Below are positions 7,106 through 23,000 of a stretch of DNA of 64,000 nt, piece by piece. The notes below the pieces were generated by a model. That model had not been told where the DNA came from. It did not search any database and was given only the letters and a program-made list of their open reading frames with translations. The stretch covers positions 1,302,001-1,366,000 of the forward strand of contig NZ_QPKJ02000001.1 in NCBI RefSeq assembly GCF_003344625.1, given 5' to 3'. This stretch comes from Solirubrobacter deserti (lineage in GTDB: Bacteria > Actinomycetota > Thermoleophilia > Solirubrobacterales > Solirubrobacteraceae). The position numbers and the translations under genes are program-made. Each line of letters starts with the position of its first letter. The first letter of the stretch is position 1.

Positions 7106-9184
7106 TCAACCACCCTTGACCGGTTGGTCTATGGCCAGCACGGCGGTGTCGTCAGCCTGCGCACCGCGCTGGAAGGCGTTCAGCGCCCGGTCGATGGCCG
7201 CGACGGCGCTGGTCGCGTCCCTCACGCCGCGCAACGCTTCGACCAGGCGCTCGTCCCCGAAGCGCTCGTGCTCGCCCTCGGCGTCCGTGACGCCGTCCGT
7301 GTAGAGGACCAGCACGTCGCCGGGTTCGAACGCGAGCGAGTCGGGCTTCCAGCGGCTGTCGCTCCAGGCGCCGAGCATCGGGCCGAAGTGGCCGACCGGC
7401 CGGGGCTCGCCGTCCCGGATCAACAGCGGCCGAGGATGACCCGCGCACAGCACGTCCGTGGTCTGCGCGGTGACATGCACGACCGCGACCGTGCACGGCG
7501 TGAGCTCCTTGCGGTCCGCGAGCGTGTGGTTGAGCTGCTGCAGCGCGGCCGCCGGATCCGACAGCAAGCGGCCCGCCGTGCGCAGCGTGTGCCGGGCCTG
7601 GCCGGTCTGCGCGGCGGCCGCCGCGCCGCGGCCGGTGACGTCGCCGACGAGCAGCATCCAACCCGCGTCGGTGGGGAACGCGTCGTAGAAGTCGCCGCCG
7701 ACGAGGTTCTCGAGGCCGGCCGGGCGGTACAGGCTCGACAGGCGCAGGCCGGGGATGGTCGGGAGCGCGTCGGGCAGCAGCCCGCGCTGGAGCGTGGTCG
7801 CGATCTCGGAGCGCTCGCGGTACAGGCGCGCGTTCTCGACCGCGATCCCGGCGCGCCGGCCCAGGTCCTCGGCCAGCCGCAGGTCGTCCTCGCTGAACGT
7901 GCGCCCGGATTCCGCGCTCGCGAACGTGATCGAGCCGATCGGACCGCCGGAGCCGAGCATCGGCACGGCCATGAACGCCCGCAGGCCGAGCCGGCGCGCG
8001 GCCACGCGCTGCTCGGGGTCGGAGACGATCTCCTTCAGCACCTCGTCGGTGATGTCGTTCACGCGCAGCGACGTCCCGTTCAGCACGGCCACGGCGCCGG
8101 GCGCGTCGAGCCGCGCCGGGTAGCGCTCCTGGTACTCGTGGGCGAGCTCGAGCATCTCCGGGTCCACGTGCACGAGCGCGACGCTGCGCAGGTGCTCGCC
8201 GCTGGGCATCGTCACGTTGCACCAGTCCGCCAGGCGGGGCACGGCGAGCCGGGCGATCCGGTTGAGCGTCTGCTCGTAGTCCAGGCTGGACGCGAGCAGC
8301 GCACCGGCCTGGGCCAGGAAGCGCTGCGCGTGCTCGGCGCGCTTGACCTCGGTGACGTCCTCGATGACGTTGACGGCGTAGCCGCCCGGCGCCGCCGTCG
8401 CCTTCAGGATCCGCCAGTACTCGGCCCCGATGTCGCGGCGCACCGTGCGGATCAGCAGCGGCTCCGGCGTCTCGCCGCGGACCAGGCGGTGCCCCGGCAG
8501 CCGTTCGAGCGGGACCGGCGTACCGGCCTCCGTGTAGGTGTCCCAATTCTCGGCGACCTGCTCCAACGGGGTCGCCAGGAACGCCTCGGGCGTGTCAAAG
8601 CCGACCGCGAGCGCCGCCGCCTGGTTGGCGTAGATCAGCCGTCCGGACGGGTCCTGGATCGTGACCGCCTCGGCGAGCGTGTCGAGGGCCGCCGTGAGCC
8701 GGGTCTCGACGCGCTGGAGCTGGGCGTTCTCGAGCGCGAGCGCGACGCGACCGGCGAGCAGCTGGGCGAACTCCAGCTCCTCCGGCGCGTACGTGCGCTC
8801 GGTCGCTGTGAGGCGCAGCGTGCCGATGTCGCGGCCGCGCGCGACCAGCGGAACGGTGAGCGCCTGCGGGCGGTGACGCGGCGGCTCGGTGGTCTCGAGG
8901 TCGACCTCGCACCTGGTCGCATAGCCCGGCGTCAGCAGCGCCGTCAACCGCTCGATGACCTCCGCGACCGTGAGGTCGGAATCGGCGATCACCGCGGCGC
9001 CGCGGATGAGCGCGTACCGCTCGTGGTCGCCCGCCAGCGCCCGCCGCTCGCCGGCGGCCAAGTGCAGCAGGGCCGCAAGCACGGCCAGCGCGACCGCCAC
9101 ATTCACCAGCGGCGGGACGCCGATGACCGTCAGAGCTGCGACCAGCGCCACGCCGAGCGCCGCCACCAGCGTCGACCCGCGCAT
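7106..9184 (-). CDS. Membrane-anchored GAF/PAS/GAF SpoIIE-type protein phosphatase
   Basis: This 692-residue PP2C-type (SpoIIE/RsbU) phosphatase removes phosphate from STAS-type anti-sigma antagonists. It begins with a hydrophobic hairpin (residues about 1-40), then GAF (about 50-185), PAS (about 195-310), GAF (about 330-470) and the phosphatase domain (about 485-690). Metal-binding signatures are clear: GGDFYDAF, LLVGDVTGRG, LYTDGVTDAE and DDTAVLAI. It starts immediately after the stop of a STAS gene with no gap, so the pair is co-transcribed and that STAS protein is the likely substrate. The two GAF and PAS domains would make activity depend on a small ligand or redox/light input that cannot be identified here. 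Confidence 0.93.
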   Translation of the reverse strand: MRGSTLVAALGVALVAALTVIGVPPLVNVAVALAVLAALLHLAAGERRALAGDHERYALIRGAAVIADSDLTVAEVIERLTALLTPGYATRCEVDLETTEPPRHRPQALTVPLVARGRDIGTLRLTATERTYAPEELEFAQLLAGRVALALENAQLQRVETRLTAALDTLAEAVTIQDPSGRLIYANQAAALAVGFDTPEAFLATPLEQVAENWDTYTEAGTPVPLERLPGHRLVRGETPEPLLIRTVRRDIGAEYWRILKATAAPGGYAVNVIEDVTEVKRAEHAQRFLAQAGALLASSLDYEQTLNRIARLAVPRLADWCNVTMPSGEHLRSVALVHVDPEMLELAHEYQERYPARLDAPGAVAVLNGTSLRVNDITDEVLKEIVSDPEQRVAARRLGLRAFMAVPMLGSGGPIGSITFASAESGRTFSEDDLRLAEDLGRRAGIAVENARLYRERSEIATTLQRGLLPDALPTIPGLRLSSLYRPAGLENLVGGDFYDAFPTDAGWMLLVGDVTGRGAAAAAQTGQARHTLRTAGRLLSDPAAALQQLNHTLADRKELTPCTVAVVHVTAQTTDVLCAGHPRPLLIRDGEPRPVGHFGPMLGAWSDSRWKPDSLAFEPGDVLVLYTDGVTDAEGEHERFGDERLVEALRGVRDATSAVAAIDRALNAFQRGAQADDTAVLAIDQPVKGG

Positions 9185-9514
9185 CTACTCCCCGGGTGCG
9201 AGGTCGAGCATCCGCACGCGGCCGTCGAGACCGACGAGGCCGAACACGCGATCCACCTCGCCCGTGCCGCGCACGACTGCGAACGCCGGCCCGTGGTCGC
9301 GCGCGAGCTCGACCACGAGGCGGATCCCGGTCGAGTCCAGAAAGCTGACCGCCCGCAGGTCGAGCACCAGCTCGCGGTGCGGCTCGGCGAGGCCCTGCTC
9401 GATCTCGGCCTCCACCGCGTCGACCGTGCCGAGGTCGATCTCGCCGACGGGGGCGACGACGATGGTTTCGCCCACGCGCCGACGCGTCACCGAGAACTCC
9501 GGACCAACCTCCAT
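9185..9514 (-). CDS. STAS-domain anti-sigma factor antagonist
   Basis: This 109-residue single STAS domain is of the SpoIIAA/RsbV type. It has the diagnostic phosphorylation loop FLDSTGIRL with target Ser61, preceded by the strand VLDLRAVS. In the known mechanism the unphosphorylated form captures an anti-sigma kinase; a SpoIIE-type phosphatase resets it. The directly adjoining downstream phosphatase fits that role. No RsbW-type kinase adjoins it, though RsbT/RsbW-like domains are encoded 5 kb away. The start gives a normal N-terminus. Confidence 0.93.
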   Translation of the reverse strand: MEVGPEFSVTRRRVGETIVVAPVGEIDLGTVDAVEAEIEQGLAEPHRELVLDLRAVSFLDSTGIRLVVELARDHGPAFAVVRGTGEVDRVFGLVGLDGRVRMLDLAPGE

Positions 9515-9615: not shown

Positions 9616-10755
9616 ATGGCCAAGAGCGAGTACACGGTGCTCGAGGTCGCCGGGCGCGAGGTCCGGCTCTCGAACCCCGGCAAGGTCTACTTCCCGAAGC
9701 CCGGCTGGACGAAGCTCGACCTCGCGCAGTACTACATCGAGGTCGGCGAGGCCGCGCTGCGCCACGTCCGCGAGCGCCCGACGATGATGAAGCGCTTCGT
9801 CAACGGGATCCTGGAGGACCCGATCTGGCAGAAGCGCGTGCCCCAGAAGGTGCCGGACTGGCTGCAGACCGCGACGGTCGCCTTCCCGTCCGGGCGCACC
9901 GCCGAGGAGCTCGTGGCCAACGACGAGGCGCACCTGGTGTGGGCCGTCAACCTCGGCGTGATCGACTTCAACCCGTGGCCGTGCCGGCGCGCCGACCTGG
10001 ACCGGCCGGACGAGCTGCGCGTCGACCTGGACCCAGGGCCCGGCGTCGGGTGGGACGATGTGCGCCGCGTCGCGCTGGTGGCGGACGAGGTGCTGCGCGA
10101 GCACGGGCTGCGCGGCTATCCGAAGACGTCAGGGTCCAAGGGCATCCACGTGCTGGTGCGGATCGAGCCGTTGTGGGAGTTCCTCGAGGTGCGGCGCGCG
10201 GCGCTCGCGCTGGCGCGCGAGATCGCCCGCCGCGCGCCCGACTTGGCCACCGCCAAGTGGTGGAAGGAGGAGCGCCACGGCGTGTTCGTCGACTATAACC
10301 AGAACGCGCGCGACCGCACCGTGGCCTCCGGCTACAGCGTTCGTCCGACTCCGGACGCGCGCGTGTCCTGCGCGCTGGAGTGGTCGGAGGTGGCGGCCGT
10401 CGAGCCCGGTGACCTGCGTCTGGACACGGTGCCCGCTCGGCTGAAGGCGATCGGCGATCCCGCGGAGTCGATCGACGACGTCCCGGGTTCGCTCGACGGA
10501 CTGCTCGACCTCGCTCGGCGTGACGAGGAGGGCGGGCTCGGCGACGCGCCCTGGCCACCGCACTTCCCGAAGGCCGCACGCGAGCCCAAGCGCGTCCAAC
10601 CCTCACGCGACGCGGACCGCCCGTCCCAGCGCGGGCGTGCCGGCGATCCCCAGCCCGGCGGCCCTCCCCCCGGCTTCTCGCTGCAGAACCAGCGCGGGTT
10701 CGGCGCCAAGCCCCGGACCGGCCAGGGCCACGAGCACGAGTTCGACGAGTCCTAG
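9616..10755 (+). CDS. Stand-alone LigD-type polymerase (non-homologous end joining)
   Basis: This 379-residue protein is the primase-polymerase domain of LigD without the ligase and nuclease domains, which adds nucleotides at broken DNA ends. The catalytic signature LRVDLDPGPG supplies Asp137 and Asp139, YPKTSGSKGIHV holds the nucleotide-binding loop, and VDYNQN supplies the third acidic residue, Asp226. The core ends near residue 300; the last 80 residues are Pro/Gly/Arg-rich and look disordered, ending GFGAKPRTGQGHEHEF. Neither Ku nor an ATP-dependent ligase is in the window, so its partners are elsewhere. It is a single gene, divergent from the STAS/phosphatase pair and convergent with the stressosome operon. 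Confidence 0.93.
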   Translation: MAKSEYTVLEVAGREVRLSNPGKVYFPKPGWTKLDLAQYYIEVGEAALRHVRERPTMMKRFVNGILEDPIWQKRVPQKVPDWLQTATVAFPSGRTAEELVANDEAHLVWAVNLGVIDFNPWPCRRADLDRPDELRVDLDPGPGVGWDDVRRVALVADEVLREHGLRGYPKTSGSKGIHVLVRIEPLWEFLEVRRAALALAREIARRAPDLATAKWWKEERHGVFVDYNQNARDRTVASGYSVRPTPDARVSCALEWSEVAAVEPGDLRLDTVPARLKAIGDPAESIDDVPGSLDGLLDLARRDEEGGLGDAPWPPHFPKAAREPKRVQPSRDADRPSQRGRAGDPQPGGPPPGFSLQNQRGFGAKPRTGQGHEHEFDES

Positions 10756-10761
10756 CCGGAT

Positions 10762-10778
10762 GCGCGTTACGAACGCGC
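10762..10778. terminator. Short GC hairpin between convergent genes
   Basis: A 7-bp perfect stem (GCGCGTT/AACGCGC) with a 3-base loop lies just after the polymerase stop and overlaps the stop of the STAS gene on the other strand. There is no T-run. Confidence 0.5.
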
Positions 10779-11099
10779 GGAGCTCGCCGCGAACGGCAGG
10801 GCCTGATCGAGCCCGGAGAGCACGAACGCGCGATGGACCTGCGGCGGGCCGGCGATCACGGAGTACTCATAGCCCGCGGCCGTCGCGGCGTTGTTGAAGC
10901 GCACCAGCGCGCCCAGGCCCGAGGAGTCGATGAACTCCAGCTCGCTCAGGTCCAGCGTCAGGGCGCGGCCGCCGGACTGCGCCTCGTTGAGCGCCGCGGT
11001 CAGCTCCGGCGCGCCCGCCAGGTCCAGCTCGCCCGACAGCGCGAGCACCAGGCCGCCGGCTTGCTCGCGCGTCTCGATCTTGAACACCGGCAGCTTCAT
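10767..11099 (-). CDS. STAS-domain anti-sigma factor antagonist
   Basis: This 110-residue STAS protein is the last gene of the stressosome operon. It reads MKLPVFKIETREQ, then GELDLAGAPEL and the phosphorylation loop EFIDSSGLGALVRF, where Ser59 or Ser60 would be the target. A GGTGG-type ribosome site precedes this ATG, which lies 11 bp after the stop of the upstream REC/PP2C gene; a longer open frame upstream lacks family sequence. It is probably dephosphorylated by one of the two operon phosphatases and phosphorylated by an RsbW/RsbT-type kinase domain. Confidence 0.92.
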   Translation of the reverse strand: MKLPVFKIETREQAGGLVLALSGELDLAGAPELTAALNEAQSGGRALTLDLSELEFIDSSGLGALVRFNNAATAAGYEYSVIAGPPQVHRAFVLSGLDQALPFAASSARS

Positions 11100-11110
11100 C
11101 TGCGACCACC

Positions 11111-12517
11111 TTAGAGGACGCAGCGCTGGGCGAGCAGCAGGGCCACATCGTCGCGCGGATGCGTGTCCCCGACCAGCCGCTCCACCACGTGCGCGCGCAG
11201 CGCCTCCAGCCCGTCCACGGTCGCGCACTCGGTCACCAGCCGGTCGATCGCGTCGTCGATCAGCTCCCCCGGCCGCTCCACGAGCCCATCCGTGTAGAGC
11301 ATCAACCGGTCCCCCGCCTCGAACGCGAACGTCGACTCCGCGTAGCTCGCGCCGACCACGCCGAGCACGACCCCGTGCCCCTCCACGGCGAGCCGCGGCG
11401 GCCCGGCCGCCGGGACCAGCACGGGCGGCGGGTGCCCCGCGGACACCACCCGCACCTCGTCATCGTCGTGCGTGATGGCCACGATGCACATCGTCGCCAT
11501 GTCGGTGAGCTCGGTGTCCGTGACCAGCTCGTTCAGCCGCCGCACGGACTCCGCGAGCCCGAAGCCCTCGTGCGCGTACACGCGCAGCGAGTGGCGCAGC
11601 TGTCCGGCCTGCGCCGCGGCGGCCACGCCGTGCCCGGCCACGTCGCCGATCACGAGCCAGACGCCGTTGCGCGTCTCGATCACGTCGTACCAGTCCCCGC
11701 CGACGATCAGCTCCTGCTCGGCGGCCAGGTGCCACGCGTGTACGGCCAGCCGCTCGTCCGACGGGAGGCGCTCGGGCAGCAGCGTCTGCTGCAAGGTGCG
11801 CGAGATCGTCTGCTCGCGCGCCAGCGCCGCCGCGCGCTCGCGCTCGGTGCGCCGCGCCGCGGTGACGTCGCTGAGCGTCACCACCAGCCGCTGCGAGCCG
11901 GGCACGACGTCCACGCGCACACTGTGCGTCCGGTTCTCGAGCTCGAGCTCGCCGCTGGAGCGCCCCACCTCGAGCGCCTCCACGCGCGTGCCGACCGCGT
12001 CAGAGCCGAACACCGCCTCGAACGCCGGGTTCGCCCGCACCACCACGCCGTCGGGATCGAGGACGGCGACGGCATCGGAGATCGCGTCGAACGTCGTGCG
12101 CCACTCGGTCGCGGCGCTGCGCACCTCGGCCTCCAGGGAACGCGCCCGCAGCATCGACCGGATCGTCGCGGCCAGCACCGGCGCCTCGACGGGTTGTGTC
12201 AAATACGCATCGGCGCCGGTCTCCAGCCCTTCGACCTTCGCCTCGGTCTCCATGAACGTCGCCGACAGCATCAGCACCGGGATGTGCCGCGTGTCCTCGT
12301 GGGACTTGATGCGCCGGCACGCCTCGAACCCGTCGAGCCCCGGCATCTTGACGTCCAGCACCGCGATGTCGGGCGGATCCGCCAGCACGGCGGCGACGGC
12401 CGAGAGCCCGTCCGCGACCTCCCGCACCGTGAAGCCCGACCGTCGCAGCATCGTCGCTATCACGTAGCGGCCGACATCGTCGTCGTCCGCGAGCAGGATC
12501 GACGGCTCGCGGGTCAT
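11111..12517 (-). CDS. Response regulator with PAS and SpoIIE-type phosphatase output
   Basis: This 468-residue protein runs receiver (1-125), PAS (about 140-215), PP2C/SpoIIE phosphatase (about 240-465). The receiver has the acidic pocket LLADDDD and phospho-acceptor Asp55 in AVLDVKMPG; the usual Lys near the end is replaced by Gln (AYLTQPVEAP). The phosphatase carries GGDWYDV, LVIGDVAGHG, LYTDGLVERP and DDVALLL. It would turn a histidine-kinase signal into dephosphorylation of a STAS protein. It overlaps the hybrid kinase gene by 4 bp (ATGA) and sits 11 bp before a STAS gene, naming both a likely input and a likely substrate. Confidence 0.93.
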   Translation of the reverse strand: MTREPSILLADDDDVGRYVIATMLRRSGFTVREVADGLSAVAAVLADPPDIAVLDVKMPGLDGFEACRRIKSHEDTRHIPVLMLSATFMETEAKVEGLETGADAYLTQPVEAPVLAATIRSMLRARSLEAEVRSAATEWRTTFDAISDAVAVLDPDGVVVRANPAFEAVFGSDAVGTRVEALEVGRSSGELELENRTHSVRVDVVPGSQRLVVTLSDVTAARRTERERAAALAREQTISRTLQQTLLPERLPSDERLAVHAWHLAAEQELIVGGDWYDVIETRNGVWLVIGDVAGHGVAAAAQAGQLRHSLRVYAHEGFGLAESVRRLNELVTDTELTDMATMCIVAITHDDDEVRVVSAGHPPPVLVPAAGPPRLAVEGHGVVLGVVGASYAESTFAFEAGDRLMLYTDGLVERPGELIDDAIDRLVTECATVDGLEALRAHVVERLVGDTHPRDDVALLLAQRCVL

Positions 12518-14214
12518 CGCGTCGCCACCGACAACACCTCCAGCAGCTGCGAACGCGACGTCCGGGACTTGTCGAGCACGTGCGCGCCAAGCCCTTCGAG
12601 CCGCTCGACCTCCCAGCGCTCGAGCAGACGCGAGGTGTGGATGATCACGGGCACGGCGGCCATCCTGGCATCGGCGCGCATCCGGCGCAGGACCTCCACG
12701 CCGTCCAGATCAGGCATCGACAGGTCGAGGATGACGGCGGCCGGGAGCGCCTCCGCCAGGGCGGCCAGGGCGGGCTCGCCGCCGGCGACCGCGACCGTGC
12801 GCCAGGCCGTGTCGCGCAGGTGCGCCTCGACCACGTAGCGCGAGGTCTCGTCGTCGTCGACCACCAGCACGGCGCCCGTGACGTCCGGCACCGACGAGTC
12901 GACGTCGTGCCGCAGCGGCAGCTCGATCGTGAACGCCGTCCCCACGCCGACCGTCGAGCGGACCGTCATCTCCCCGCCCAGCAGCCCCACGAGCGTCTTG
13001 GCCAGCGGCAGCCCGAGCCCGGTCCCCTGCCGCGCCTTCTGCCGCTCCCCCGGGATCTGCACGAACTCCTCGAAGATCCGCGGCAGGTCGTCGGCGGCGA
13101 TCCCGATGCCGGTGTCGGCGACCGTGAACCGCACGCGCGGCCCGAGCACCTCCGCGCTCACGAGGACCTCGCCTTGCGGCGTGAACTTGACCGCGTTGGA
13201 GATCAGGTTGCGCAGCACCTGGATGAGTTTGGCCTCGTCGGTGCGCAGCGTCGCCTCCGCCGGCGGGAAGTCGAAGCGTAGCTGCACGCCGGCGTCCTTG
13301 AGCAGGGGGCGCAGCTGCCCGCGCAGCAAGACCAGCAGCTCGGACAGCGCCACGTCCTCGAGCTCGAGCTCCAGCCGCCCGGCCTCGATCTTGGCGATGT
13401 CGAGCAGGTCGCCGACCAGGGTCAGCTGGTCCTGCGCGACGCGCCGAATGAACGACACCTGCGTCGCCTGCTCGCTCGCGAGCGGCGGCTTCCCGCTCAG
13501 CAGCAGCTCCGCGAGCGCGATGATCGAGTTCAGCGGCGTGCGCAGCTCGTGCGACATGTCCGCCAAGAAGCGCGACTTGCGCTCGTCGGCGTCGCGCAGC
13601 CGCTGCGCGCGCTCGTCGAGCTCGGCGTAGAGCGCGACCACGCCGGTGTTGGTCTCCTCCAGCTCGCGGTTGAGTGCGAGCATCGCCTTCTGGCGCGCCC
13701 GCACCTCGCCGAGCGCCTGCAGCAGCTCCTCGTTCTGGCGCGAGACCTCGTCGAACGGGTTGACGGCGCCGCGCCGGGCCAGCTCGGCGCGTACCTCGCG
13801 CGCGTCGGGCGCCGGCCCGGGCAGCCGCTTGGCCACGCGCACGCGGGTGCCGCGCGCCGCCTCGATCTCGAACTCGTCCATCAGCTGACGCACGCCCACC
13901 AGGCCGCGGCCGAGCCCGGTGGCCGACGTGTAGTCGCCACGCAGGACCTCCTCCAGGTTCGGGATCCCGGGGCCCGCGTCGACCACCTCGACGCGCATCG
14001 CGTTCGCGCCGCAGCTGATGCGCACCTCGCCGCCGCCGGCGTAGCGGTGCGCGTTGCGCGCGAGCTCGGACACCGCGGTGGCGATCCGCGTCTGCTCGAG
14101 CCGGTCGAACCCGAGCAGCTCGGCGACGTCGCGCGCGCGCTGGCGCGCCGTGACCACGCCCTCGTCGTGGCGCAGGTCAACGCGCGCGACCTCGTCGCCG
14201 ATCGGCGCGTTCAT
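12514..14214 (-). CDS. RsbT-like kinase domain fused to hybrid histidine kinase
   Basis: This 566-residue protein begins with a full RsbT/RsbW-type GHKL domain (about 10-132): SELARNAHRYAGGGEVRIS N-box, DAGPGIPNL and GLGRGLVGVRQLMDEF, very like stressosome RsbT. A coiled coil follows (about 155-215), then HisKA with His222 in MSHELRTPLN, a second ATPase domain (TGIGIAADDLPRIFEEF, GTGLGLPLAKTLV) and a C-terminal receiver with phospho-acceptor in ILDLSMPDLDG and Lys in LDKSR. The ATG overlaps the preceding stop by 4 bp; longer open frames upstream lie over the previous gene. It may be released from the stressosome like RsbT and then signal by phosphorelay to the next gene's receiver. That role is inferred. 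Confidence 0.92.
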   Translation of the reverse strand: MNAPIGDEVARVDLRHDEGVVTARQRARDVAELLGFDRLEQTRIATAVSELARNAHRYAGGGEVRISCGANAMRVEVVDAGPGIPNLEEVLRGDYTSATGLGRGLVGVRQLMDEFEIEAARGTRVRVAKRLPGPAPDAREVRAELARRGAVNPFDEVSRQNEELLQALGEVRARQKAMLALNRELEETNTGVVALYAELDERAQRLRDADERKSRFLADMSHELRTPLNSIIALAELLLSGKPPLASEQATQVSFIRRVAQDQLTLVGDLLDIAKIEAGRLELELEDVALSELLVLLRGQLRPLLKDAGVQLRFDFPPAEATLRTDEAKLIQVLRNLISNAVKFTPQGEVLVSAEVLGPRVRFTVADTGIGIAADDLPRIFEEFVQIPGERQKARQGTGLGLPLAKTLVGLLGGEMTVRSTVGVGTAFTIELPLRHDVDSSVPDVTGAVLVVDDDETSRYVVEAHLRDTAWRTVAVAGGEPALAALAEALPAAVILDLSMPDLDGVEVLRRMRADARMAAVPVIIHTSRLLERWEVERLEGLGAHVLDKSRTSRSQLLEVLSVATR

Positions 14215-15176
14215 CCGCGCGCCACCACCACGCTCACGTCGTCGCGGCCGCGCTCGAAGTCCCGGATCAGCACCGCCGCGGTCACGAGCGGGTCGCGGCG
14301 CGGCAGGCCCGGATACGCGTTCAGGTCCCAGCCGGACCGCAATCCGTCGGAGTGCATGACGAGCAGCGCGCCGGGCGGGAACCCGTAGTCGAACGCGCGC
14401 GGGCGCTGGACGCCGTGCCCGAGGATGCCGGGCATCGACACGAGCGAGCGCGTCTCGCCCTCGATGACGATCGTCGCCGCGATGTTGCCGATGCCGGCGT
14501 ACTGAAGCGCGCCCGTGCGGCGGTTCCAGCGCGCGACCGCGCCCGCGGCCCCGCGCGTGGGCAGCAGCGCGCCGTGGATGCGGGTGAGCGCGGCCGTGGC
14601 GTCCAGCCCGGGACTGAGCTCGCGCACGGCGGTGTTGGCCGCCGCGGCGGCGGCGTCGCCGTGGCCGAGCCCGTCCGCGAGCAGGATCGTCGTGAACTCG
14701 CCGTCGGTGACCGAGCCCCACGCGTCACCGCTCGCGCTCTCCCCCGCCATCGCCAGCGCGAGCCCATCCAGCGGCGGCACCTCGCCGCCGAGGCGCGCGA
14801 GCACGACCGCGCCGCCCGGCCCGGACTGGAGGTCCATCGTGGACATGCGGCCGATCGCGCCGAGGCCGTTGCCGGGGCCGCCGCCGGTCGAGTAGCCGTC
14901 GTCGCGGGCGCGCGCGAGGTTGGAGATCCCCGGGCCGCGGTCGCACGCGATCGCGTCGATCGTCGCGCCCCGCGTGCGGTTCACGCGTAGGATGATCTCG
15001 CCGCCGCCGGCGTGGCGCACGAGGTTCGTGGCCAGCTCGGTGACGACGATCGCGGCCTCGCCCTTGCGCTGCTCGTCGAAGCCGAGGTCGTCCGCGAGCT
15101 GCTCCACCGCACGGCGCGCGGGTGCCACTCCGGAGGGATCGTCGACGCGCAGGCGGGCCGGGGCGCTCAGCGCCAT
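14211..15176 (-). CDS. RsbT-like GHKL domain fused to RsbX-like PP2C phosphatase
   Basis: This 321-residue protein joins an anti-sigma-kinase-like domain (about 10-135; VVTELATNLVRHAGGGEI, DRGPGISNL, PGNGLGAIGRMS) to a compact PP2C domain (about 140-320; ILLADGLGHG, LVMHSDGLRSGWD, RDDVSVVVAR). The phosphatase half resembles RsbX, which resets stressosome proteins by removing phosphate from RsbS and RsbR. Kinase-like and phosphatase domains in one chain would allow both halves of the cycle. It starts inside the RsbT gene (10-bp overlap) and its stop overlaps the hybrid kinase start by 4 bp. Whether the GHKL half is an active kinase is not shown. Confidence 0.9.
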   Translation of the reverse strand: MALSAPARLRVDDPSGVAPARRAVEQLADDLGFDEQRKGEAAIVVTELATNLVRHAGGGEIILRVNRTRGATIDAIACDRGPGISNLARARDDGYSTGGGPGNGLGAIGRMSTMDLQSGPGGAVVLARLGGEVPPLDGLALAMAGESASGDAWGSVTDGEFTTILLADGLGHGDAAAAAANTAVRELSPGLDATAALTRIHGALLPTRGAAGAVARWNRRTGALQYAGIGNIAATIVIEGETRSLVSMPGILGHGVQRPRAFDYGFPPGALLVMHSDGLRSGWDLNAYPGLPRRDPLVTAAVLIRDFERGRDDVSVVVARG

Positions 15177-15565
15177 GTGGCCACGCGCACGATCGTGCCG
15201 CCGGTCGGGTTGTCCCGCACGTCGAAGTCGTTCACGAGCCGGCGCGCCCCGCCGAACCCCAGGCCGAGCCCGGTGCCGGTGCTGAACCCGTCGGTGAGCG
15301 CCATCTGCACGTCCGGGATCCCGGGTCCGTCGTCCTCGAAGGTCGCGTAGACGCCCTGGCGGGCGCCGTCGAGCAGCAGCCCGGCGCGCAGCCGGCCGCC
15401 GCCGCCGTGGATGATCGTGTTGCGCGCCAGCTCGGAGACGGCGGTCACGAACTTCGTCTGGTCGACGAGCCGCAGGCCGGCCTGCTGGGCCAGCTCCCGC
15501 ACGCGGTGACGCGCGCGCACGACGTCCTCGTCCGTGCGCAGCGGGAGCGGTTCGTCAAGGGCCAG
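15167..15565 (-). CDS. rsbT: RsbT-type serine/threonine kinase (stressosome switch)
   Basis: This is a small GHKL kinase with N-box SELARNTIIHGGGGRL, DDGPGIPDVQ and GTGLGLGFGGARRLVNDF. RsbT phosphorylates RsbS and RsbR and leaves the stressosome to activate a downstream phosphatase or other target. The start is odd. The first GTG in frame (15520) would delete the conserved EDVV part of the first helix. RsbT-like sequence (EPLPLRTDEDVVRARHRVRE) continues upstream to a CTG at 15563-15565, preceded by GAGGAGGCGGAG inside the end of rsbS. No ATG, GTG or TTG was found in the nearby upstream frame. I chose CTG; identity is firm, the start is not. Confidence 0.85.
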   Translation of the reverse strand: MALDEPLPLRTDEDVVRARHRVRELAQQAGLRLVDQTKFVTAVSELARNTIIHGGGGRLRAGLLLDGARQGVYATFEDDGPGIPDVQMALTDGFSTGTGLGLGFGGARRLVNDFDVRDNPTGGTIVRVATWR

Positions 15566-15962
15566 CGGTCTCCGCCTCCTCGTCGCCCGGATCCTCGTCG
15601 ACGGTCGGTGCGGGGAGCATCGCCATGCCGCGCTCGACCGTGAGCGCCGTGCGCACGCCCGGCAGCGTGAGGCCGAGATCCACGAGCGTGATCGCCACCA
15701 CGGGCCGCATGCCGACGACCACCGTATCGGCGTCCAGCACGCGCGCGATCCCGGCGATGTCGGACAGCATGCGCCCGATGAAGGAGTCGATGAACTCCAG
15801 GCCGGAGATGTCGATCAGCACGCCGCGGGCGCCCGTCTCCGCGATCCGCTCGGCCAGGTCCTCCTGCAGCGCGAGCGCCATCCGGTCGTGCATGTCGACC
15901 TGGATGCTCACCAGCAGCAGGTGGCCGAGCTTGAGGATCGGGATCCGGTTCACGCGGTCCAT
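15555..15962 (-). CDS. rsbS: RsbS-type stressosome STAS scaffold protein
   Basis: This 135-residue STAS protein has the RsbS-specific sequence GLEFIDSFIGRMLSDIAG; Ser60 corresponds to the serine that RsbT phosphorylates in Bacillus RsbS. It also has VGMRPVVAITLVDLGL, typical of the stressosome core. RsbS and RsbR form the large pseudo-icosahedral stressosome that holds RsbT inactive. The acidic C-terminal tail (DEDPGDEEAE) is an extension beyond the usual domain. The gene lies 5 bp after the RsbR stop and overlaps the start of rsbT. Confidence 0.93.
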   Translation of the reverse strand: MDRVNRIPILKLGHLLLVSIQVDMHDRMALALQEDLAERIAETGARGVLIDISGLEFIDSFIGRMLSDIAGIARVLDADTVVVGMRPVVAITLVDLGLTLPGVRTALTVERGMAMLPAPTVDEDPGDEEAETAGP

Positions 15963-15967
15963 CCCGG

Positions 15968-16819
15968 CTACTCCGCCGTCGCGACCGGCGCCTTGCGGCG
16001 CACGATCTGATGGCCCGTGCGCTCGAGTGCGACGGTCACCGCGTCCGCCAGGCTCGACTTGGTCGTGACCTCGGACAGGTCCAGCCCGAGGTGCACGATC
16101 GTCTGGGCGATCAGCGGGCGGATGCCGGAGATGATGCAGTCAGCACCCATCAGGCGCGCGGCGGTGACCGCCTTGAGCAGGTGCTGGGCGACCATCGTGT
16201 CCACGGTCGGGACGCCGGTGATGTCGATGATCGCGATCGCTGAGTCGGTCTCGACGATCTTCTGCAGCAGGCTCTCCATCACGACCTGCGTGCGAGCCGA
16301 GTCCAGCGTGCCGATCAGCGGCAGCGCGACGACGCCCTGCCAGAGCTTGACGACCGGCGTCGAGAGCTCGATCAGCTCGTCCTGCTGGCGCCGGATGACG
16401 TCCTCGCGCGTGCGCAGGTAGGCCTCGGCGGTGAACAGGCCGAGGTTGTCGATCAGCTGCGTCGCGGCCCATATCGCCGCGCCATCGGGCAGCTTGCCGA
16501 ACAGGGGCTCCTTGAACGAGAACACGAACGTCGCCGTCTCGGTCGGCGTGAACCCGCGCGTCGCGCGCGTGCGGCTGAGGTTCGTGAGCTGCTCGCGGAT
16601 CGCGTCCCAGGCCGGGCCGGAGGTGTCAGCCGTCGATGACTCGGTGACGGCGATCGCGAGCGCGGTCAGGAAGCGGTCGCTCTCGACCCGGAGCTCGCTC
16701 TCGGAGATCAGGTCCGTGCGTACGCCGGGCGCCGCCAACTGCGCCTGTACCCAGGCGTCCAGCAGCTCCGTCCGCTGTTCACGCAGCACCGCTTGGATGA
16801 CCGACAGTCCCTCACTCAT
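15968..16819 (-). CDS. rsbR: RsbR-type stressosome sensor protein
   Basis: This 283-residue protein has an N-terminal non-haem globin-like sensor region (about 1-145), a linker helix, and a C-terminal STAS domain (about 155-275). RsbR signatures are LPLIGTLDSARTQVVMESLL and DITGVPTVDTMVAQHLLKA; Thr171 and Thr205 lie in the segments known to carry the RsbT phosphorylation sites. The ATG at 16819 gives MSEGLSVIQAVL; a TTG six codons upstream is less likely. It is the first gene of the operon and would set the stress input, with the N-terminal domains projecting from the stressosome. The stimulus is unknown. Confidence 0.93.
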   Translation of the reverse strand: MSEGLSVIQAVLREQRTELLDAWVQAQLAAPGVRTDLISESELRVESDRFLTALAIAVTESSTADTSGPAWDAIREQLTNLSRTRATRGFTPTETATFVFSFKEPLFGKLPDGAAIWAATQLIDNLGLFTAEAYLRTREDVIRRQQDELIELSTPVVKLWQGVVALPLIGTLDSARTQVVMESLLQKIVETDSAIAIIDITGVPTVDTMVAQHLLKAVTAARLMGADCIISGIRPLIAQTIVHLGLDLSEVTTKSSLADAVTVALERTGHQIVRRKAPVATAE

Positions 16820-16855: not shown

Positions 16856-17005
16856 ATGGACGGTGACGAGAAGGACCGCACGGACAACTCCCCCGGGGCC
16901 GAGGGCGGCGAGTCCTCAGAGAACAAGGACACGCCACCCGCGGCGCCCGCGGACGACGACTCGCCGCTGGGCGACACCGATCAGCACTCCAATGCTGACG
17001 CCTAG
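16856..17005 (+). CDS. Small acidic protein of unknown function (49 residues)
   Basis: An ATG preceded by TAGGAG at ideal spacing opens a 49-codon frame: MDGDEKDRTDNSPG..., ending in SPLGDTDQHSNADA. It is very acidic, lacks hydrophobic segments and is probably disordered. I do not recognise a named family; the GDTDQHS tail looks like a motif rather than chance. It is divergent from rsbR with only 36 bp between start codons, so both may share a regulatory region. Its TAG stop shares the palindrome CTAG with the stop of the giant protease gene on the other strand. Confidence 0.72.
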   Translation: MDGDEKDRTDNSPGAEGGESSENKDTPPAAPADDDSPLGDTDQHSNADA

Positions 17006-20000
17006 CGCTTCCCCTTCCTGAAGGTCACGGTGCGCGTCTGGCGGGACAGCAGCTTGCCGCTGCCCGTCGCGCGCACCTCGAGCTTGAGCCGGACCTTCAG
17101 CGGGGCCCGCTTGAGGCGCTTCACCGCGCCCGGCGTCAGCCGCATCTTGAGCCTGGCCGTCGTGCCCGCGGGGACGCGCAGCTTGACCGGCTTGACGAGC
17201 TTCGCGCGTCTCGGCGCCTTCGCCGCGGACGCGCCGCCCGCGACCTCGCTCAGGCTCATCGTGCAGTTGCTGATGTCGCCGCCGGGCGCGCACGGAATCG
17301 AGATGAAGCACTGGTTCGTCCGCGGGTCGACGTTGCAGCTCGGCGGGAGGCTGCCGCCGGGCGGCGCGGGATCGTCCTGGCCGTGCGACGGGCCGCCGCC
17401 ACCGGCCCCGCCGCCGCCACCGACGGCACCGCCGACGTGCGGCGGGGGCGGCGGGGGCGGCGGAGGCGGAGCCGCCTGGACGGTCAGGTTCACCGTCGCC
17501 GGCGAGGCATCGTTGTCTCCGTCGGAGGCCGCGTACGTGAACGTGTCGGCACCCGCGTAGCCGGCGGACGGCGTGTAGACGACGGTGTGGTCGTCCTCGA
17601 CCGCCCCGAGCGTGCCGTGCGCCGGCGGCGTGAGCACGCGGACGCTGAGCGGATCGCCGTTCGGGTCCCCGCACATGAGCTTGATCCGCAGGCGGCCGTC
17701 GTGCGGGACGGTCGCGGTCAGCTCGTCGCACTCGGGCGGCGTCGGGTCCTGCAGGTACGGCAGTGCGCGCCAGCTCGGCCGCTCGCGCCAGGCGACGCCG
17801 CTGGTGAGCTTGCGCTTGCCGCCCCCATCGGGCCGCATCGTCCACACGTGGAACGATCGCTCGACGGTCTCGCCGCGCTCGGACGTGTAGGCGATCCGGC
17901 GCCCGTCCGGGGACCACACGGGGTTCTCGTCGCTGTCGAAGAGCGGACAGTCGTCGTCGCACTCGGGGTCGCGGGTGAGGTTGCTCAGGCCCGTGCCGTC
18001 AGGCTCGACGGTGAAGATCTCCGCGTCGATGTAGTGCTGGTCGTCGCGCCGGTACTGGTCGAAACCGCTGAACGCGATCCGGTAGCCGTCCGGTGACCAC
18101 GCGGGCGAGGTCGCGATCGCCATGCCGCGCGTGATCGCGGCGCGGGCGCCGCCGTCCACGTCGATGACGTAGATGTCTCGGCCGTCCGCGAGCGCGCCCG
18201 TGAACGCGAGCCGCTCGCCGTCCGGCGACCAGGTGGGCTCCTTGGCGTCGACGTCCTGCGTGTTCGGGACGACCGTGCGCGTGTTGGCCTCGAGGTCGTG
18301 GATGACGATCCCGCAGCGCGCGAGCTCCTGGCACTCCGAGTACGCGACGCGACGGCCGTCATGCGCCCACGCGAGCCCGCTGCGCTGGTGCGCGGGCGGC
18401 AGCGGCAGCGTGCGCTCCTCGCTGCCGTCGGCGTTCGCGATCGTCACGCCGGCGACGCTGACGTGCCCGATGCGCGTCCCGTCGGGCGAGTGCGCGGCCC
18501 GCTGGACGAACGGCGACAGCGGCGGCGGGTCGACCGGCTGGCCGGACGGCTTGACCGCCCCCCACGAGCGCTGCGTGCCGATCAGCTGGTTGAACACGAG
18601 CTCGCCGTTGCGGCCCGCGCGGGCCGGGCAGGCCGGCGCAGCGCCGTCGCCGGCGCGCACCTCCATCCACGCCTCGCGCAGGCGCAGCTGGCCGAGCGCC
18701 TGCGCGCGCAGCGTGGCGACGGCCGCGCCCGCCTCCAGCTGGACCGCGCCGCGATAGCAGCCCGTGCCGGCCTCGTCGAGCAGCGTCACCGTGACCGGCG
18801 CGCGCCCCTCGCGCTTGACGGACACGTCGACGGTCGCGCCCGGGACGCGCCGGTCGTCGCGCTCGACGATCGCGAGCAGCGGTGTGGGTCCGCCACCGGG
18901 CGCGCGCCCGTACCGCAGGTCGAGCTCCCACCGGTCCTCTTCGAGCTGCGCGGCGACCTGCGCCTGCTCGGCGGCCTGCGCCGTCGACTGCAGCCGCACG
19001 AGCCAGCGCCCGCGATCCGGGTCGTCGGCGACGAGCGACCGCACCGGCGCCCGGCCCTCGCCCTGCCCGGCCACGATGCGCTGCACGACGGTCCCGTTCG
19101 GGGCCACCAGCTCGGCGGTGACCCGCGGCGAGGCGAGCACCTGCACGGCGATCCGCGAGCCGCCGTCGACCGTGAGCGGCGTGTCGACCGTCGCGCCCGG
19201 CGCGAGCGCCACCAGCTCCCGCGCGAGCAGGTCGTGGGTGCGCCCGAGCACGCGCGGGGCGTCCTCGCCCACGTCCGCGGCCGCGGCCCGAGCGCGCGGC
19301 GCCGCGGCGCCCTCGTCGTCCGCCGCCGCGCGCTTCTCGCCGGCGGGCGCGCCCGGGCCCTCGGGCAGGCCGGCCACGTGCGGGACGATGAATGAGCGCA
19401 GCACGAGGCCGGAGTCGATCATCTCGCCGTGGAGCACCGGGGCCTCGCGGACGTCCTCGAGCGTCCAGCGCTGGCTCGTCACGCCGGACACGCCGTCGCC
19501 CGGCTCGGCCGTGCCGCAGGTACCGGCGGCCGCCGAGCCCGAGAAGGCCGCGAACTGCACGCCGCGACGCTCGGTCACGCGCGTGTTGAACGCGGCAACC
19601 AGCTCGCGCCGGAGCTGGTAGACGGCGGGCACGTGCGCGAGCTCGGCGCACGGGGTGCCGAGGTTCGGCGTGCCGAGCATCAGCAGATGCTCGACCGGGG
19701 TCGCGAGGTCGGACAGGGTGTGCACGTATTGGCGCGCGATCAGGCCGCCGAGGCCGTGGGCGACGACGTCCACGCGCGCGGCGTCCTCGTCCATGCGCAC
19801 GGTGCGGACCGCTTCGGCCAGGACCGCCGCGTTGCGCTCGACGCCGGGCGTCTCGCGGTCCAGCGCGGTCCAGTTGCCCGTGTCCATGCCGCCCACCGGG
19901 ACGGCACGCCAGTCCGGGTGCACGCGCCGGACCTGTTCGGCCATCGCGTCCCACGCGCCCGCGGTCGCGAACTCGCCGTGCACGAGCACCAGCGGCTTCG

Positions 20001-23000
20001 GGCGGATCTTCAGCACCGCGCCGCGGCTGTTGTAGGTCGTGCGACCGCGGCTCGCGAGGAAGCGGATCACGTGGTCGGAGTCGGGACCGCCGGCGGCGTT
20101 CCAGGCCAGGCCCTCGGTGTCGTATTCGAGCGTGACCGTGCGCTCCTGTCCGGGCTCGAGCGAGACCGGGTCGACGGGCGCGGCGAAGAACGCGCCGACG
20201 TTCTCGTCATGGGCGTTCACGCGCGCGACGTGGTGGCGCGTGTCACGGTTGGCGACCTTCACCAGCGCGCGCACGCGGTTTCCGTCCACGGTTCCGTCGG
20301 CGCCGACCGGCGCCCACTCACCGCTGGCGACGTCGCGCTCCTGCAGGGTCACCTGCTCCACGCACACTCGGCACGGGCCGAGCGAGAGCTGGTACGCGCG
20401 GCGCACGCCGTCGACCAGGCCGGTACCGACGATCTCGTCGCGGTCGTTGATGCCCTCCGCGCTGACCAGCGACCAGCGCGTGCCGCGGACGTAGCGGTTG
20501 AGGTCCTCCATCGGGCGCCCGCGCCGCCAGCGGAAGGCGATCGTGCGCCCGAGCTGGTCTCCGGCGTGGCCGACGATCGTCCCCGCCTCGTTGATCGTCC
20601 GCGCGACGGACGGACCGCCGAGGTCGTCCATGCGCTCGAGCGTGCCCGCCGCGCTCCAGCGCGCGGCCTGGTGGCCGTGGAGCGCATGGTCGGACACCCA
20701 GCCCGCGATCTCCCCCGACTCGTTGATGCTGAGGGCCGCGCCGCTGGCCAGGCTCGGGAGCCGCGTCAGCGTCCCGCCGCTGAAGCGGATCGGCTGGCCG
20801 CAGCGGTCCGGCTCGGGCATGCCGACACAGCCGACCACGACGCCGCTGTCGCTGACGTCCGTCGCCGAGGCGTTCGTGCGCTCGCGCTCGGGCACGCCGG
20901 CCAGCACCTGGATGTCCTCCATCGGCGCGCCCAGCGGCTTGACGAACGCGCGCCAGCGGTCGCGGTCGAGCGCGGACTCGCCGACGACCGTGCCCCCGCT
21001 GTTCATGCCCTGCCCGAGCGCCCAGGTGCCGCCGAGCGTGCCCAGGTCGGTCGGGACGTCGCCGTTCCACAGCACCGCCCGCGTGTTGGCGGTGCTCGTG
21101 TCGTCGTCGGAGACGCCGACGGTCTGGCCGAGATCGTTCGCGTCCCACGCGATCGTGCGCGTCGCGCCGGGCAGGCCGGCCAGCGCCGCGGGCTGGCCGT
21201 CGCGGTAGCGCAGCGCGTGCGTCGTGCCCGTCCACGGGTCCTCCGGGCGGCCGATCTGACCCGTCATGCCGACGACGTCGCCGCGGGGCGTGATCGCGAC
21301 CGCCCGCCCCTGGTGGTCCTCCGGGGCGGCCGTGCCGAGGTCGAAGATCTCGACGCCGAGCCCGACCGCCACCGCCGCCCGGAACTCGTCCGTCTCGCCG
21401 TCCTGCGCGGTCACCTGCAACCGCACGGTGTGCGTGCCGCTCTCGTCGAACGCGTGCTTGACGGTCGGTGTCGTGCCCGTGTCCCGCTCGTAGGTGCCGT
21501 CGCCGTCGAGGTCCCAGCGGTAGCCGACGATCGCCGCCGAGCCCGCCTTGGAGCCGCGCGCGTCGAACGTGACCTCCTCGTCGACGTCGGGCGCGTCCGG
21601 CGTCGCGGCGAACACGGCCCGCGGCGGGTGCACCGGCGTCGCGAAGACCATGAACTCGGCGATCGAGAGGTCCTTCGCGGCCGGGTCGAGCGGGTCCGAG
21701 AGGGTCAGCCGCACGCGGCGCACGCCTTCGATCGCCCCGGACGTGGGCCGCTGGAGGAACTTGTGGCGGTGGCCCGCCGCGAGCTGGATCGTCCCGACGG
21801 AAGCCCAGGCGCGGCCCGCCTTGTCCGAGGTCTCGATGACCGCGGTCTGCGGCATCATCCCGTCCGCGGCGCGGCAGCGCGGCGTCGGGTTCAGGGCGAA
21901 GCCGCTCACGCGCACGTCGGCCGGGAGCTTGATCTCGATCGTGCGCGGGCCGCTGTTCTCCGTGCGCCAGCCGGACTTCGCGCTGCCGTCGAGCACGGCC
22001 TGCGCGCGGCAGGAGTGCGGCGGCGGCTCGTTCTCCTGCGGCTCGCTGACGAGCTCGGCGCCCATCCGCGCGTCCGCCCAGTTGCGCCGGGCGGTGAGGT
22101 CGGCCTGAGTCGCCGGCCCGCCGACGGCCAGGTTCGGGCGCTGTGCACGCTCGTAGCCGACCGCGTCCACGGTCAGCTTGCCGTAGGTCCCGACCGGCAC
22201 GTTGGCGATCGCGTACTCACCCTGCGCGTTGGTGCGGGCGGTCAGGTCCGGCGTCAGGCGCCGGCCGGCGCTGAAGCGGACCTGCGCGTTGGCGAGCGGC
22301 GCGCCGCTGTCGCGGTCGCGCACGACGCCGTGCACCACGGCGCGCTGCGCGGCCGTGTTCGGCTTGGTGTGGTCGGCCTTCGGGTCGGCGTCGTCGGCGT
22401 CCGTCGCGGCCGCGTACCAGCCCATCCCGCGCGCGGCGAACACCGTCCAGATGCGGTCCTTCTCCGCCCCGGCGAGGACGTTCTCGTCCACCAGCAGCAG
22501 CGCGTTGCGGAAGTCCAGGAACGTCGGCTCGGCCGGGACCTCGCGCAGCGCCTCGGTCACGAGCAGGCGGACCCGGTGCAGCCCGTCCTGCTGACCGTAC
22601 GCGGCGATCAGCGCGTCACGCAGGTCCCACAGCGTCTGGGCGATGATCTCGCCGTCGGCGTGCGGCTCGGGCCCGTCGGCGTCGATCATGCCGTAGTGGT
22701 CGTAGGTGAAGCCGCCCTCGTCCACGGGCGTGTCGATCCCCTGATGGCGGTAGACGAGGCTCTGCGGGTCGGCGAAGCGCGCGAAGCGCACGTCCCCGCT
22801 CGCGGGCCCGTCGGCGATCGCGTCCGTGTCGACGAGCCAGTCGAGCGCGTAGAAATCGGCCAGGCCCTCGTCGAGCGCGTCGGCCTGCAGCTGCGTGAGC
22901 GCCTCCCAGCCCTCGCCGTCGGTCACCAGCCGCCCGGCGAGCCCGTGCGCGAGCTCGTGCGCGATCGTCGCCGGCTCCTCCGCGGAGCTCACCGCCGGCA

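What the first reader, a model, noticed from the sequence alone, without database searches (positions are those of the whole stretch)
10767..16819. Stressosome operon merged with two-component signalling
Seven same-strand genes with overlaps or tiny gaps encode RsbR, RsbS, RsbT, an RsbT-like/PP2C fusion, an RsbT-like/hybrid kinase fusion, REC-PAS-PP2C and a STAS antagonist. RsbRST modules are known to use varied outputs, but here two extra RsbT-like domains are fused directly to a phosphatase and to a histidine kinase. The stressosome may therefore release three different RsbT-like outputs.
Basis: partly seen in the sequence, partly recalled or inferred. Interest (0 to 1): 0.72.

Follow-up and report, generated by a model that had tools for sequence, protein, structure and literature searches.

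The report
Stressosome wired into a histidine kinase
A soil bacterium carries a stress-sensing gene cluster in which the protein normally released by the sensor complex appears to have been fused to a histidine kinase, a wiring shared with some cyanobacteria and acidobacteria that seems to replace the usual receptor for that protein.

Summary
Seven tightly packed minus-strand genes (10767-16819, Solirubrobacter) encode RsbR, RsbS, RsbT, a GHKL-PP2C fusion (XT), a GHKL-histidine kinase-REC hybrid (KT), REC-PAS-PP2C and an RsbV-like STAS protein. R-S-T-XT-KT is co-linear in 18 of 22 fetched KT loci from three phyla. RsbT lies within 2 kb of KT, same strand, in 47 of 48 KT genomes. The KT domain groups with RsbT; where XT belongs is unresolved. 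RsbU_N, the known receptor of free RsbT, passed its cut-off in 0 of 59 KT-only genomes but in 16 of 16 family genomes with a canonical RST module, the window's genome included. KT has lost RsbT residue D92, which contacts RsbU. Best reading: in this stressosome class the released messenger is covalently part of the histidine kinase, replacing RsbT-RsbU_N docking and driving REC-PAS-PP2C and the STAS protein, much as B. cereus RsbKY does; XT is probably the reset phosphatase, not an output. New variant of a known kind.

The parts
15968..16819 (-). RsbR: RsbRD_N sensor domain + C-terminal STAS
   Evidence: PF14361 E 5.4e-27 and PF01740 E 8.9e-15; VDT(M/L)VAQH motif in 19 of 19 aligned RsbR STAS domains
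15555..15962 (-). RsbS: single STAS domain with DSFIGR motif, Ser60
   Evidence: PF01740; hits RsbS chains 6qcm, 6jhk, 2vy9 in PDB, best E 8.8e-31; Ser60 invariant in 19/19
15167..15565 (-). RsbT: stand-alone GHKL switch kinase; probable CTG start 15565-15563 (alternative GTG 15520)
   Evidence: PF02518/PF13581; SpoIIAB in PDB E 6.7e-5; start codon comparison
14211..15176 (-). XT: RsbT/RsbW-like GHKL domain (residues 1-132, about 14781-15176) fused to RsbX-like PP2C
   Evidence: PF13581 E 4.6e-9, PF07228 E 7.1e-7; PP2C Asp/Gly residues invariant in 21 aligned sequences
12514..14214 (-). KT: RsbT-type GHKL domain (residues 1-135, about 13810-14214) + about 90-residue heptad linker + HisKA + HATPase_c + REC
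   Evidence: PF13581, PF00512, PF02518, PF00072; groups with RsbT; linker
11111..12517 (-). REC-PAS-PP2C: likely phosphotransfer target and phosphatase output; REC beta5 Lys replaced by Gln
   Evidence: PF00072 E 9.7e-23, PAS_8 E 1.9e-7, PF07228 E 3e-40; YLTQP motif
10767..11099 (-). RsbV-like STAS antagonist with DSSGLG motif
   Evidence: STAS_2 E 4.8e-17; TIGR00377 61.8 bits, cut-off 53.45

Best explanation
A distinct stressosome class. RsbR and RsbS form the STAS scaffold and RsbT phosphorylates it, as in Bacillus. The messenger is not (only) free RsbT: the hybrid kinase KT carries an RsbT-type domain in place of a sensor domain and is itself a stressosome client. At rest KT (and RsbT) dock on unphosphorylated RsbS/RsbR. 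On stress, phosphorylation of RsbS Ser60 and RsbR releases KT; its heptad linker, which has conserved polar core positions, then changes register or stability, and the histidine kinase phosphorylates the REC of REC-PAS-PP2C (directly or via its own REC), which dephosphorylates the RsbV-like STAS protein and frees a sigma factor from an RsbW-type kinase. XT uses its GHKL domain to dock on the scaffold and dephosphorylates RsbS-P/RsbR-P, resetting it. Shown: domains, gene order, phylogenetic grouping, catalytic residues, complementary distribution with RsbU_N. Inferred: docking, release, direction of kinase control, phosphotransfer route, target sigma factor.
For: (1) KT tracks RsbT: same strand within 2 kb in 7/7 KT genomes of 146 searched in the family, 29/30 of 291 in the cyanobacterial class, 11/11 of 297 in the acidobacterial phylum. 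(2) Tree: KT plus three T-PP2C fusions one group (100/100), and RsbT+KT separated from XT and RsbW-like rows by one branch (96/96, 97% of 200 bootstrap trees, no typed row). (3) RsbU_N over cut-off in 16/16 family genomes with a canonical RST module, 15 of them within about 3 kb of the canonical RsbT, but 0/21 KT-only genomes; 0/11 acidobacterial and 0/30 cyanobacterial KT genomes versus 12/22 acidobacterial genomes with an RsbT-like hit but no KT, all 12 beside that RsbT. (4) N-box/ATP residues kept in KT (E45, N49 in 144/144; D78 in 143/144) while D92 is D in only 2/144. In B. subtilis D92 forms a predicted salt bridge with RsbU linker residue R91, backed by charge-swap rescue (PMC12143880, passages). 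(5) Natural fusions: P0095, P0251, P0267 join a KT-type domain and the same linker directly to the PP2C, and P0244 joins an RsbR-type N-domain (50% identical) to PAS-PP2C (67% identical PP2C), linking front and back ends. (6) The same genome has a canonical module RsbU(RsbU_N-GAF-PP2C)-R-S-T-X with single-domain X. The window's RsbS is 62-70% identical to four cyano/acidobacterial T-fused-module RsbS but 40% to its own genome's canonical RsbS.
Against: No binding or phosphorylation data. RsbT of the module keeps R23 (22/22) and D92 (21/22) although no RsbU_N is there, which a pure hand-over of output to KT would not predict; and D92 is not strictly kept in RsbT either (92 of 120 listed RsbT homologues), so its loss in KT is suggestive only. 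R19 is also an RsbU-binding residue, so its retention does not prove STAS docking. Two KT-bearing MAGs of 19 genomes lack RsbS; in G482 R-S-T and XT-KT are on different contigs; L016 has them on opposite strands and L017 and L019 show no R-S-T on the fetched stretch. In L015 the KT frame is interrupted by a stop. The scaffold is not clearly more constrained than in canonical modules: RsbS somewhat more, RsbR STAS mostly less. The target REC lacks the usual Lys, so its activation may be unusual. In cyanobacteria and acidobacteria the next gene is often REC-PAS-HK, not PP2C, and no RsbV-like gene was detected on the fetched stretches, so the output end is not conserved. Ten acidobacterial genomes have an RsbT-like hit with neither KT nor RsbU_N, so other wirings may exist.
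Confidence: 0.55

Rival explanations
1. RsbT remains the only released messenger, and KT is its receptor: free RsbT binds the KT coiled-coil linker (as it binds RsbU and its linker), perhaps pairing with the fused GHKL domain; the fused domain is a receptor or dimerisation module, not a stressosome client.
For: Module RsbT keeps the RsbU-contact residues R23 (22/22) and D92 (21/22). KT has a long heptad linker of near-constant length (87-93 aa in the 120 proteins with an H-box motif found; heptads). PMC12143880 shows RsbT activating RsbU by ordering such a linker (passages).
Against: The seven-gene Pfam scan shows no RsbU_N on KT; its N-domain groups with RsbT and keeps an intact ATP site, which a mere receptor would not need.
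Confidence: 0.22
2. The KT GHKL domain is an RsbW-like serine kinase for the STAS antagonist at 10767-11099, opposing the PP2C; the stressosome link is only transcriptional.
For: Catalytic residues intact; a STAS antagonist and PP2C are in the operon.
Against: KT groups with RsbT, not with the four RsbW-like rows; no V-like STAS gene was detected on the 19 cyanobacterial/acidobacterial stretches fetched, some of them short; 47/48 linkage to RsbT and complementarity with RsbU_N.
Confidence: 0.1
3. Ordinary RSTX module beside a two-component system, as already known; the extra GHKL domains are incidental domain accretions without a docking role.
For: RSTX modules followed by HisKA/REC, PP2C or GGDEF proteins are published (PMC9237108, passages).
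Against: Fusions found in three phyla with catalytic residues nearly unchanged and complementary to RsbU_N; incidental domains should decay.
Confidence: 0.1

Closest known systems
B. subtilis stressosome RsbR-RsbS-RsbT with RsbU and RsbX
   Same: R, S, T homologues with conserved phospho-site motifs; PP2C after RsbT
   Different: No RsbU_N protein in the operon; the RsbX-like PP2C carries a GHKL domain; an RsbT-type domain is fused to a hybrid histidine kinase. The same genome holds a canonical RsbU-R-S-T-X set elsewhere
Vibrio vulnificus RSTX-D1-D2 and proteobacterial RsbU_N-histidine kinases (PMC9237108, PMC10014275, PMC12143880; passages)
   Same: Stressosome operon joined to two-component proteins
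   Different: There coupling is by free RsbT to RsbU_N, or the contact is unknown, and X is single-domain; here the kinase carries its own RsbT-type domain
B. cereus RsbK-RsbY-RsbV (hybrid kinase to REC-PP2C to STAS; PMC3999984 passages, PMC9912610 start of abstract in a search listing)
   Same: Back half: hybrid kinase, REC-PP2C, RsbV-like STAS
   Different: B. cereus lacks RsbRST; here the kinase input is an RsbT-type domain; no RsbW or sigma gene in the operon
Moorella RsbRST controlling a diguanylate cyclase (cited in PMC4976288 and PMC12143880, passages)
   Same: Alternative output of an RST module
   Different: RsbU_N on the output protein (as PMC12143880 states); no T-domain fusion mentioned in the passages seen

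Membership tests
RsbRST stressosome module | RsbR: variable N-domain + STAS with phosphorylatable residue(s) | tested here: met
   PF14361+PF01740; VDT(L/M)VAQH in 19/19; that these residues are phosphorylated is recalled from B. subtilis
RsbRST stressosome module | RsbS: lone STAS with DSFIGR serine | tested here: met
   PDB RsbS hits; Ser60 19/19
RsbRST stressosome module | RsbT: lone GHKL kinase with N-box and G-boxes | tested here: met
RsbRST stressosome module | Assembly of an RsbR:RsbS core that binds and releases RsbT | not testable with these tools
   needs biochemistry; structure prediction queue was full (see Tried and rejected)
Canonical RSTX/RsbU wiring | Output protein with RsbU_N that receives RsbT | tested here: not met
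   No RsbU_N in the seven proteins; the genome's only RsbU_N match is at the other module
Canonical RSTX/RsbU wiring | Single-domain RsbX | tested here: not met
   XT has an N-terminal GHKL domain; own canonical X is single-domain
RsbT family (for the KT domain) | Groups with RsbT rather than RsbW | tested here: met
   RsbT+KT on one side of a branch, 96/96; 100/100 without XT; only four RsbW-like rows; sister or nested position unresolved
RsbT family (for the XT domain) | Groups with RsbT rather than RsbW | tested here: inconclusive
   XT lies outside the RsbT+KT side, with RsbW-like rows, but the root is unknown; no Arg at R23 in 24/24
B. cereus RsbKY-RsbV type | Hybrid HK + REC-PP2C + RsbV-like STAS together | tested here: met
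B. cereus RsbKY-RsbV type | RsbW and sigma-B gene in the cluster | tested here: not met
   neither is among the seven genes; the six SigBFG matches over cut-off lie elsewhere in the genome
B. cereus RsbKY-RsbV type | RsbM methyltransferase | not tested
   -

The most novel reading that the evidence does not exclude
A separate, inter-phylum stressosome class in which the scaffold holds three GHKL clients (free RsbT as scaffold kinase, XT as docked reset phosphatase, KT as a covalently tethered messenger) and converts a Ser/Thr partner switch directly into a His-Asp phosphorelay, replacing the RsbT-RsbU_N interaction.
Probability: 0.45. Interest if true: 0.68.

Novelty: new variant of a known kind. 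Interest (0 to 1): 0.55.

Why it matters
How stressosomes without RsbU/SigB reach their outputs is open: PMC9237108 (passages) detects no RsbU_N on most of the downstream proteins it considered and reports no positive RsbT-VvD1 interaction. A kinase that carries its own RsbT-type domain gives a direct, testable route from the stressosome to two-component signalling. The complementary distribution with RsbU_N in the samples from three phyla suggests a rule for predicting which wiring a genome uses, and five Solirubrobacter genomes (two of one species) contain both side by side.

Tried and rejected
Extra scaffold constraint: if RsbR/RsbS held more clients they might evolve more slowly. At equal RsbT distance RsbS is somewhat more conserved in T-fused modules and RsbR STAS mostly less (22 fused modules; 18 canonical rows, two of which repeat loci already in the set). 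Inconclusive, not used.

First tree contained three outgroup rows translated in the wrong frame (L089, L091, L095). I dropped them and rebuilt with four RsbW-like rows picked by a motif, canonical RsbT rows and the T-PP2C fusions. The support that one search printed for the RsbT+KT clade came after rerooting, so I re-tested the split as a group, without the typed B. subtilis row and also without XT; those are the values given. Counts for T, KT and XT rows do not use the dropped rows.

Viral contigs: no relative found. No PDB chain matched the KT or XT domain by sequence at E<=0.001.

Structure prediction of KT could not be run: all 18 submissions returned 'machine is busy'. No fold or interface claim rests on a model.

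Literature: ten searches (two searches listed 15 of 34 and 15 of 26 papers). From titles, abstract starts and passages of six papers I recognised no description of an RsbT-domain histidine kinase. The two most relevant surveys (Pane-Farre 2005 and the 2017 chapter) are not held, so prior description there cannot be excluded.
Full report
WHAT IS THERE. The window lies in a Solirubrobacter genome: the kinase is 100% identical to that of S. deserti (L009). The seven ORFs span 10767-16819 on the minus strand with gaps or overlaps of a few bases. Pfam gives RsbRD_N+STAS (RsbR), STAS (RsbS), GHKL ATPase (RsbT), GHKL+SpoIIE (XT), GHKL+HisKA+HATPase_c+REC (KT), REC+PAS+SpoIIE, and STAS. RsbS matches solved RsbS chains (best E 8.8e-31) and RsbT matches SpoIIAB (E 6.7e-5). 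Phospho-site motifs are conserved: RsbS Ser60 in 19 of 19 and RsbR VDT(L/M)VAQH in 19 of 19 (which residues are phosphorylated is recalled from B. subtilis).

HOW WIDESPREAD. A scan of species genomes with the kinase kept 80 of 515 loci; the first 22 (L009-L030) carry the GHKL domain by profile. In 18 of these 22 the order R-S-T-XT-KT is co-linear; this counts L009, the window's own species. L016 has R-S-T on the opposite strand nearby, L026 is a 4-kb contig with XT-KT, L019 has XT-KT only and L017 KT only; in L015 the KT frame is interrupted by a stop. They come from Actinomycetota, Cyanobacteriota and Acidobacteriota. A protein search with the KT domain gave 708 hits at E<=0.001, of which 120 are listed; 118 of the 120 also carry HisKA.

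SYSTEMATIC LINKAGE. With a KT-domain profile (A2) I searched 146 genomes of the family, 291 of a cyanobacterial class and 297 of the acidobacterial phylum. I called KT by a strong match (128 bits or more, or split matches in G302 and G386) in an open frame of 384 residues or more; domains were checked in L136, L137, L140 and L142-L144, not in each genome. KT occurs in 7, 30 and 11 genomes; the 7 include the window's own genome and one of the same species. RsbT lies on the same contig and strand within 2 kb in 7, 29 and 11 (47 of 48; my count from the listed places). The exception, G482, has R-S-T and XT-KT-REC on two contigs. Not examined: G799 (126 bits in a 237-residue frame) and five acidobacterial frames of 359-399 residues with RsbT-like scores, which I counted as without KT. 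RsbS is found in 17 of the 19 genomes behind L012-L030; the two without it are MAGs. In the window's own class RsbS occurs in only 7 of 119 sampled genomes, so the system is sporadic there. G008 of that class has R-S-T-XT followed by a PAS histidine kinase without the GHKL domain, so the XT fusion can occur without KT.

PHYLOGENY AND RESIDUES. RsbT and KT together are separated from XT and four RsbW-like rows (96/96, 97% of 200 bootstrap trees); with XT left out, RsbT+KT stand apart from RsbW at 100/100. Whether KT is sister to RsbT or nested in it is unresolved, and so is the side on which XT belongs (an earlier run with the B. subtilis row, agrees). By B. subtilis numbering, E45 and N49 are kept in 144 of 144 KT and 24 of 24 XT, and D78 in 143 of 144 KT and 24 of 24 XT. 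R19 is kept in 144/144 KT and 23/24 XT. R23 is kept in 127/144 KT and 0/24 XT. D92 is kept in 2/144 KT, 24/24 XT, 21/22 module RsbT, 15/16 canonical RsbT and 92/120 listed RsbT homologues (the 144 KT rows are 24 from loci and 120 from the protein search and overlap in part). PMC12143880 lists RsbT R19, R23 and N24 as implicated in RsbU binding, and tests a predicted salt bridge between RsbT D92 and RsbU linker residue R91: R91E abolishes activation and D92K partly restores it (passages).

COMPLEMENTARITY WITH RsbU_N. In 37 genomes RsbU_N is over its cut-off in 16 of 16 with a canonical RST module (15 within about 3 kb of the canonical RsbT; G164 on another contig) and in 0 of 21 with only the KT module; two of these 21 have a sub-threshold hit. 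In 63 genomes (G250, G252 and G258 were also) it is over cut-off in 0 of 30 cyanobacterial and 0 of 11 acidobacterial KT genomes; five cyanobacteria have sub-threshold hits. It is over cut-off in 12 of 22 acidobacterial genomes with an RsbT-like hit but no KT, in all 12 beside that RsbT. The other 10 have neither; three of their RsbT hits (G685, G734, G844) lie within about 600 bases of a contig start, and none was examined further. Together 0 of 59 distinct KT-only genomes have RsbU_N over cut-off. These genomes are related, so they are not independent events. Five Solirubrobacter genomes carry both modules, and their single RsbU_N is at the canonical one. The window's genome shows this directly: RsbU(RsbU_N-GAF-PP2C)-R-S-T-X(single PP2C) on contig C409 (L133). 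Its RsbS is 40% identical to the window's, whereas the four cyanobacterial and acidobacterial T-fused modules compared reach 62-70%.

FUSIONS THAT NAME THE PATHWAY. P0095, P0251 and P0267 carry a KT-type domain (47-61% identity), the same linker and then a PP2C 44-55% identical to that of the window's REC-PAS-PP2C, without HisKA or REC; they are the 3 such proteins among the 120 listed. P0244 has an RsbR-type N-domain (50%) on the PAS-PP2C (67% in the PP2C). P0095 has no contig information, so an assembly join cannot be excluded for it; P0251 and P0267 lie on contigs of 41 kb and 8 kb.

LINKER. From the GHKL domain to the phospho-acceptor His the distance is 87-93 residues in the 120 proteins where the H-box motif was found; 62 further profile hits had no such motif and were not sorted, though RsbT and XT frames were in the set searched. 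In 40 aligned KTs residues 164-206 fit a heptad pattern with conserved polar residues at core positions Q175 (37/40), N182 (37/40) and N189 (40/40) (the register is my inference). PMC12143880 reports unfavourable polar residues in the predicted coiled-coil cores of many related phosphatases, and that RsbU Q94L is active without RsbT (passages).

OUTPUT. In the two other Solirubrobacter species (L010, L011) and in L136 (G127, whose RsbT equals the Conexibacter protein P0182) KT is followed by REC-PAS-PP2C and a STAS protein. In several cyanobacteria and acidobacteria the next protein has a similar REC joined to a PAS-HK instead (Pfam-checked in L012, L020 and L022). This REC has Gln in place of the usual beta5 Lys in 54 of 57 PP2C-type and 8 of 10 HK-type sequences where the motif was found, out of 64 and 13 looked at. 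The genome has six SigB/F/G-type matches over cut-off and 33 STAS matches, so the target cannot be named.

MECHANISM AND LIMITS. I favour KT as a docked, releasable stressosome client whose freed kinase drives REC-PAS-PP2C, with XT as the reset arm (confidence 0.55). That module RsbT keeps its RsbU-contact residues argues that RsbT may still touch KT or another partner; this is the main rival (0.22). Binding, phosphotransfer and direction of control are inferred. No structure was predicted because the server queue stayed full.

NOVELTY. Stressosomes with two-component outputs, and RsbU_N-histidine kinases beside rsbT, are published (PMC9237108, PMC12143880 and PMC10014275, passages). I saw no open paper describing an RsbT domain as the input of a histidine kinase, nor the complementarity with RsbU_N (searches), but the two main surveys are not held. 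I file it as a new variant of a known kind.

Noticed in passing
window 15563-15565 (-): RsbT probably starts at a CTG codon 9 nt after AGGAGG. The CTG is conserved in L009, L010, L011 and L136; L011 and L136 lack the alternative GTG, L136 has no ATG/GTG/TTG in the frame ahead of it, and the Conexibacter RsbT P0182 starts at the matching position.
   Followed up: partly
window 11111-12517 (-): The REC of REC-PAS-PP2C and its relatives in three phyla mostly has Gln instead of the conserved beta5 Lys (YLTQP): 54 of 57 PP2C-type and 8 of 10 HK-type sequences with the motif found. Effect on receiver activation unknown.
   Followed up: partly
window 7106-9514 (-): A second partner-switch pair close by: STAS (9185-9514) directly followed by GAF/PAS-PP2C (7106-9184), separated from the operon by a LigD primase-polymerase gene (9616-10755, +).
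   Followed up: no
G000:C409:304545-307574 (L133): A complete canonical stressosome (RsbU_N-GAF-PP2C, RsbR, RsbS, RsbT, single-domain RsbX) in the same genome.
   Followed up: yes
P0244 (508 aa): RsbR-type N-terminal domain fused directly to PAS-PP2C, by-passing the stressosome and the kinase.
   Followed up: partly
window 17002-24177 (-): 2391-aa protein with fungalysin (M36) peptidase, PKD, PD40 and cadherin-like domains just upstream of RsbR.
   Followed up: no
L134 (G008): R-S-T-XT followed by a PAS histidine kinase without the GHKL domain: XT fusion without KT.
   Followed up: partly
acidobacterial genomes G560, G661, G682, G685, G686, G721, G734, G799, G819, G844: RsbT-like hits with neither a called KT nor RsbU_N over cut-off: either incomplete contigs or a third kind of output wiring.
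   Followed up: no
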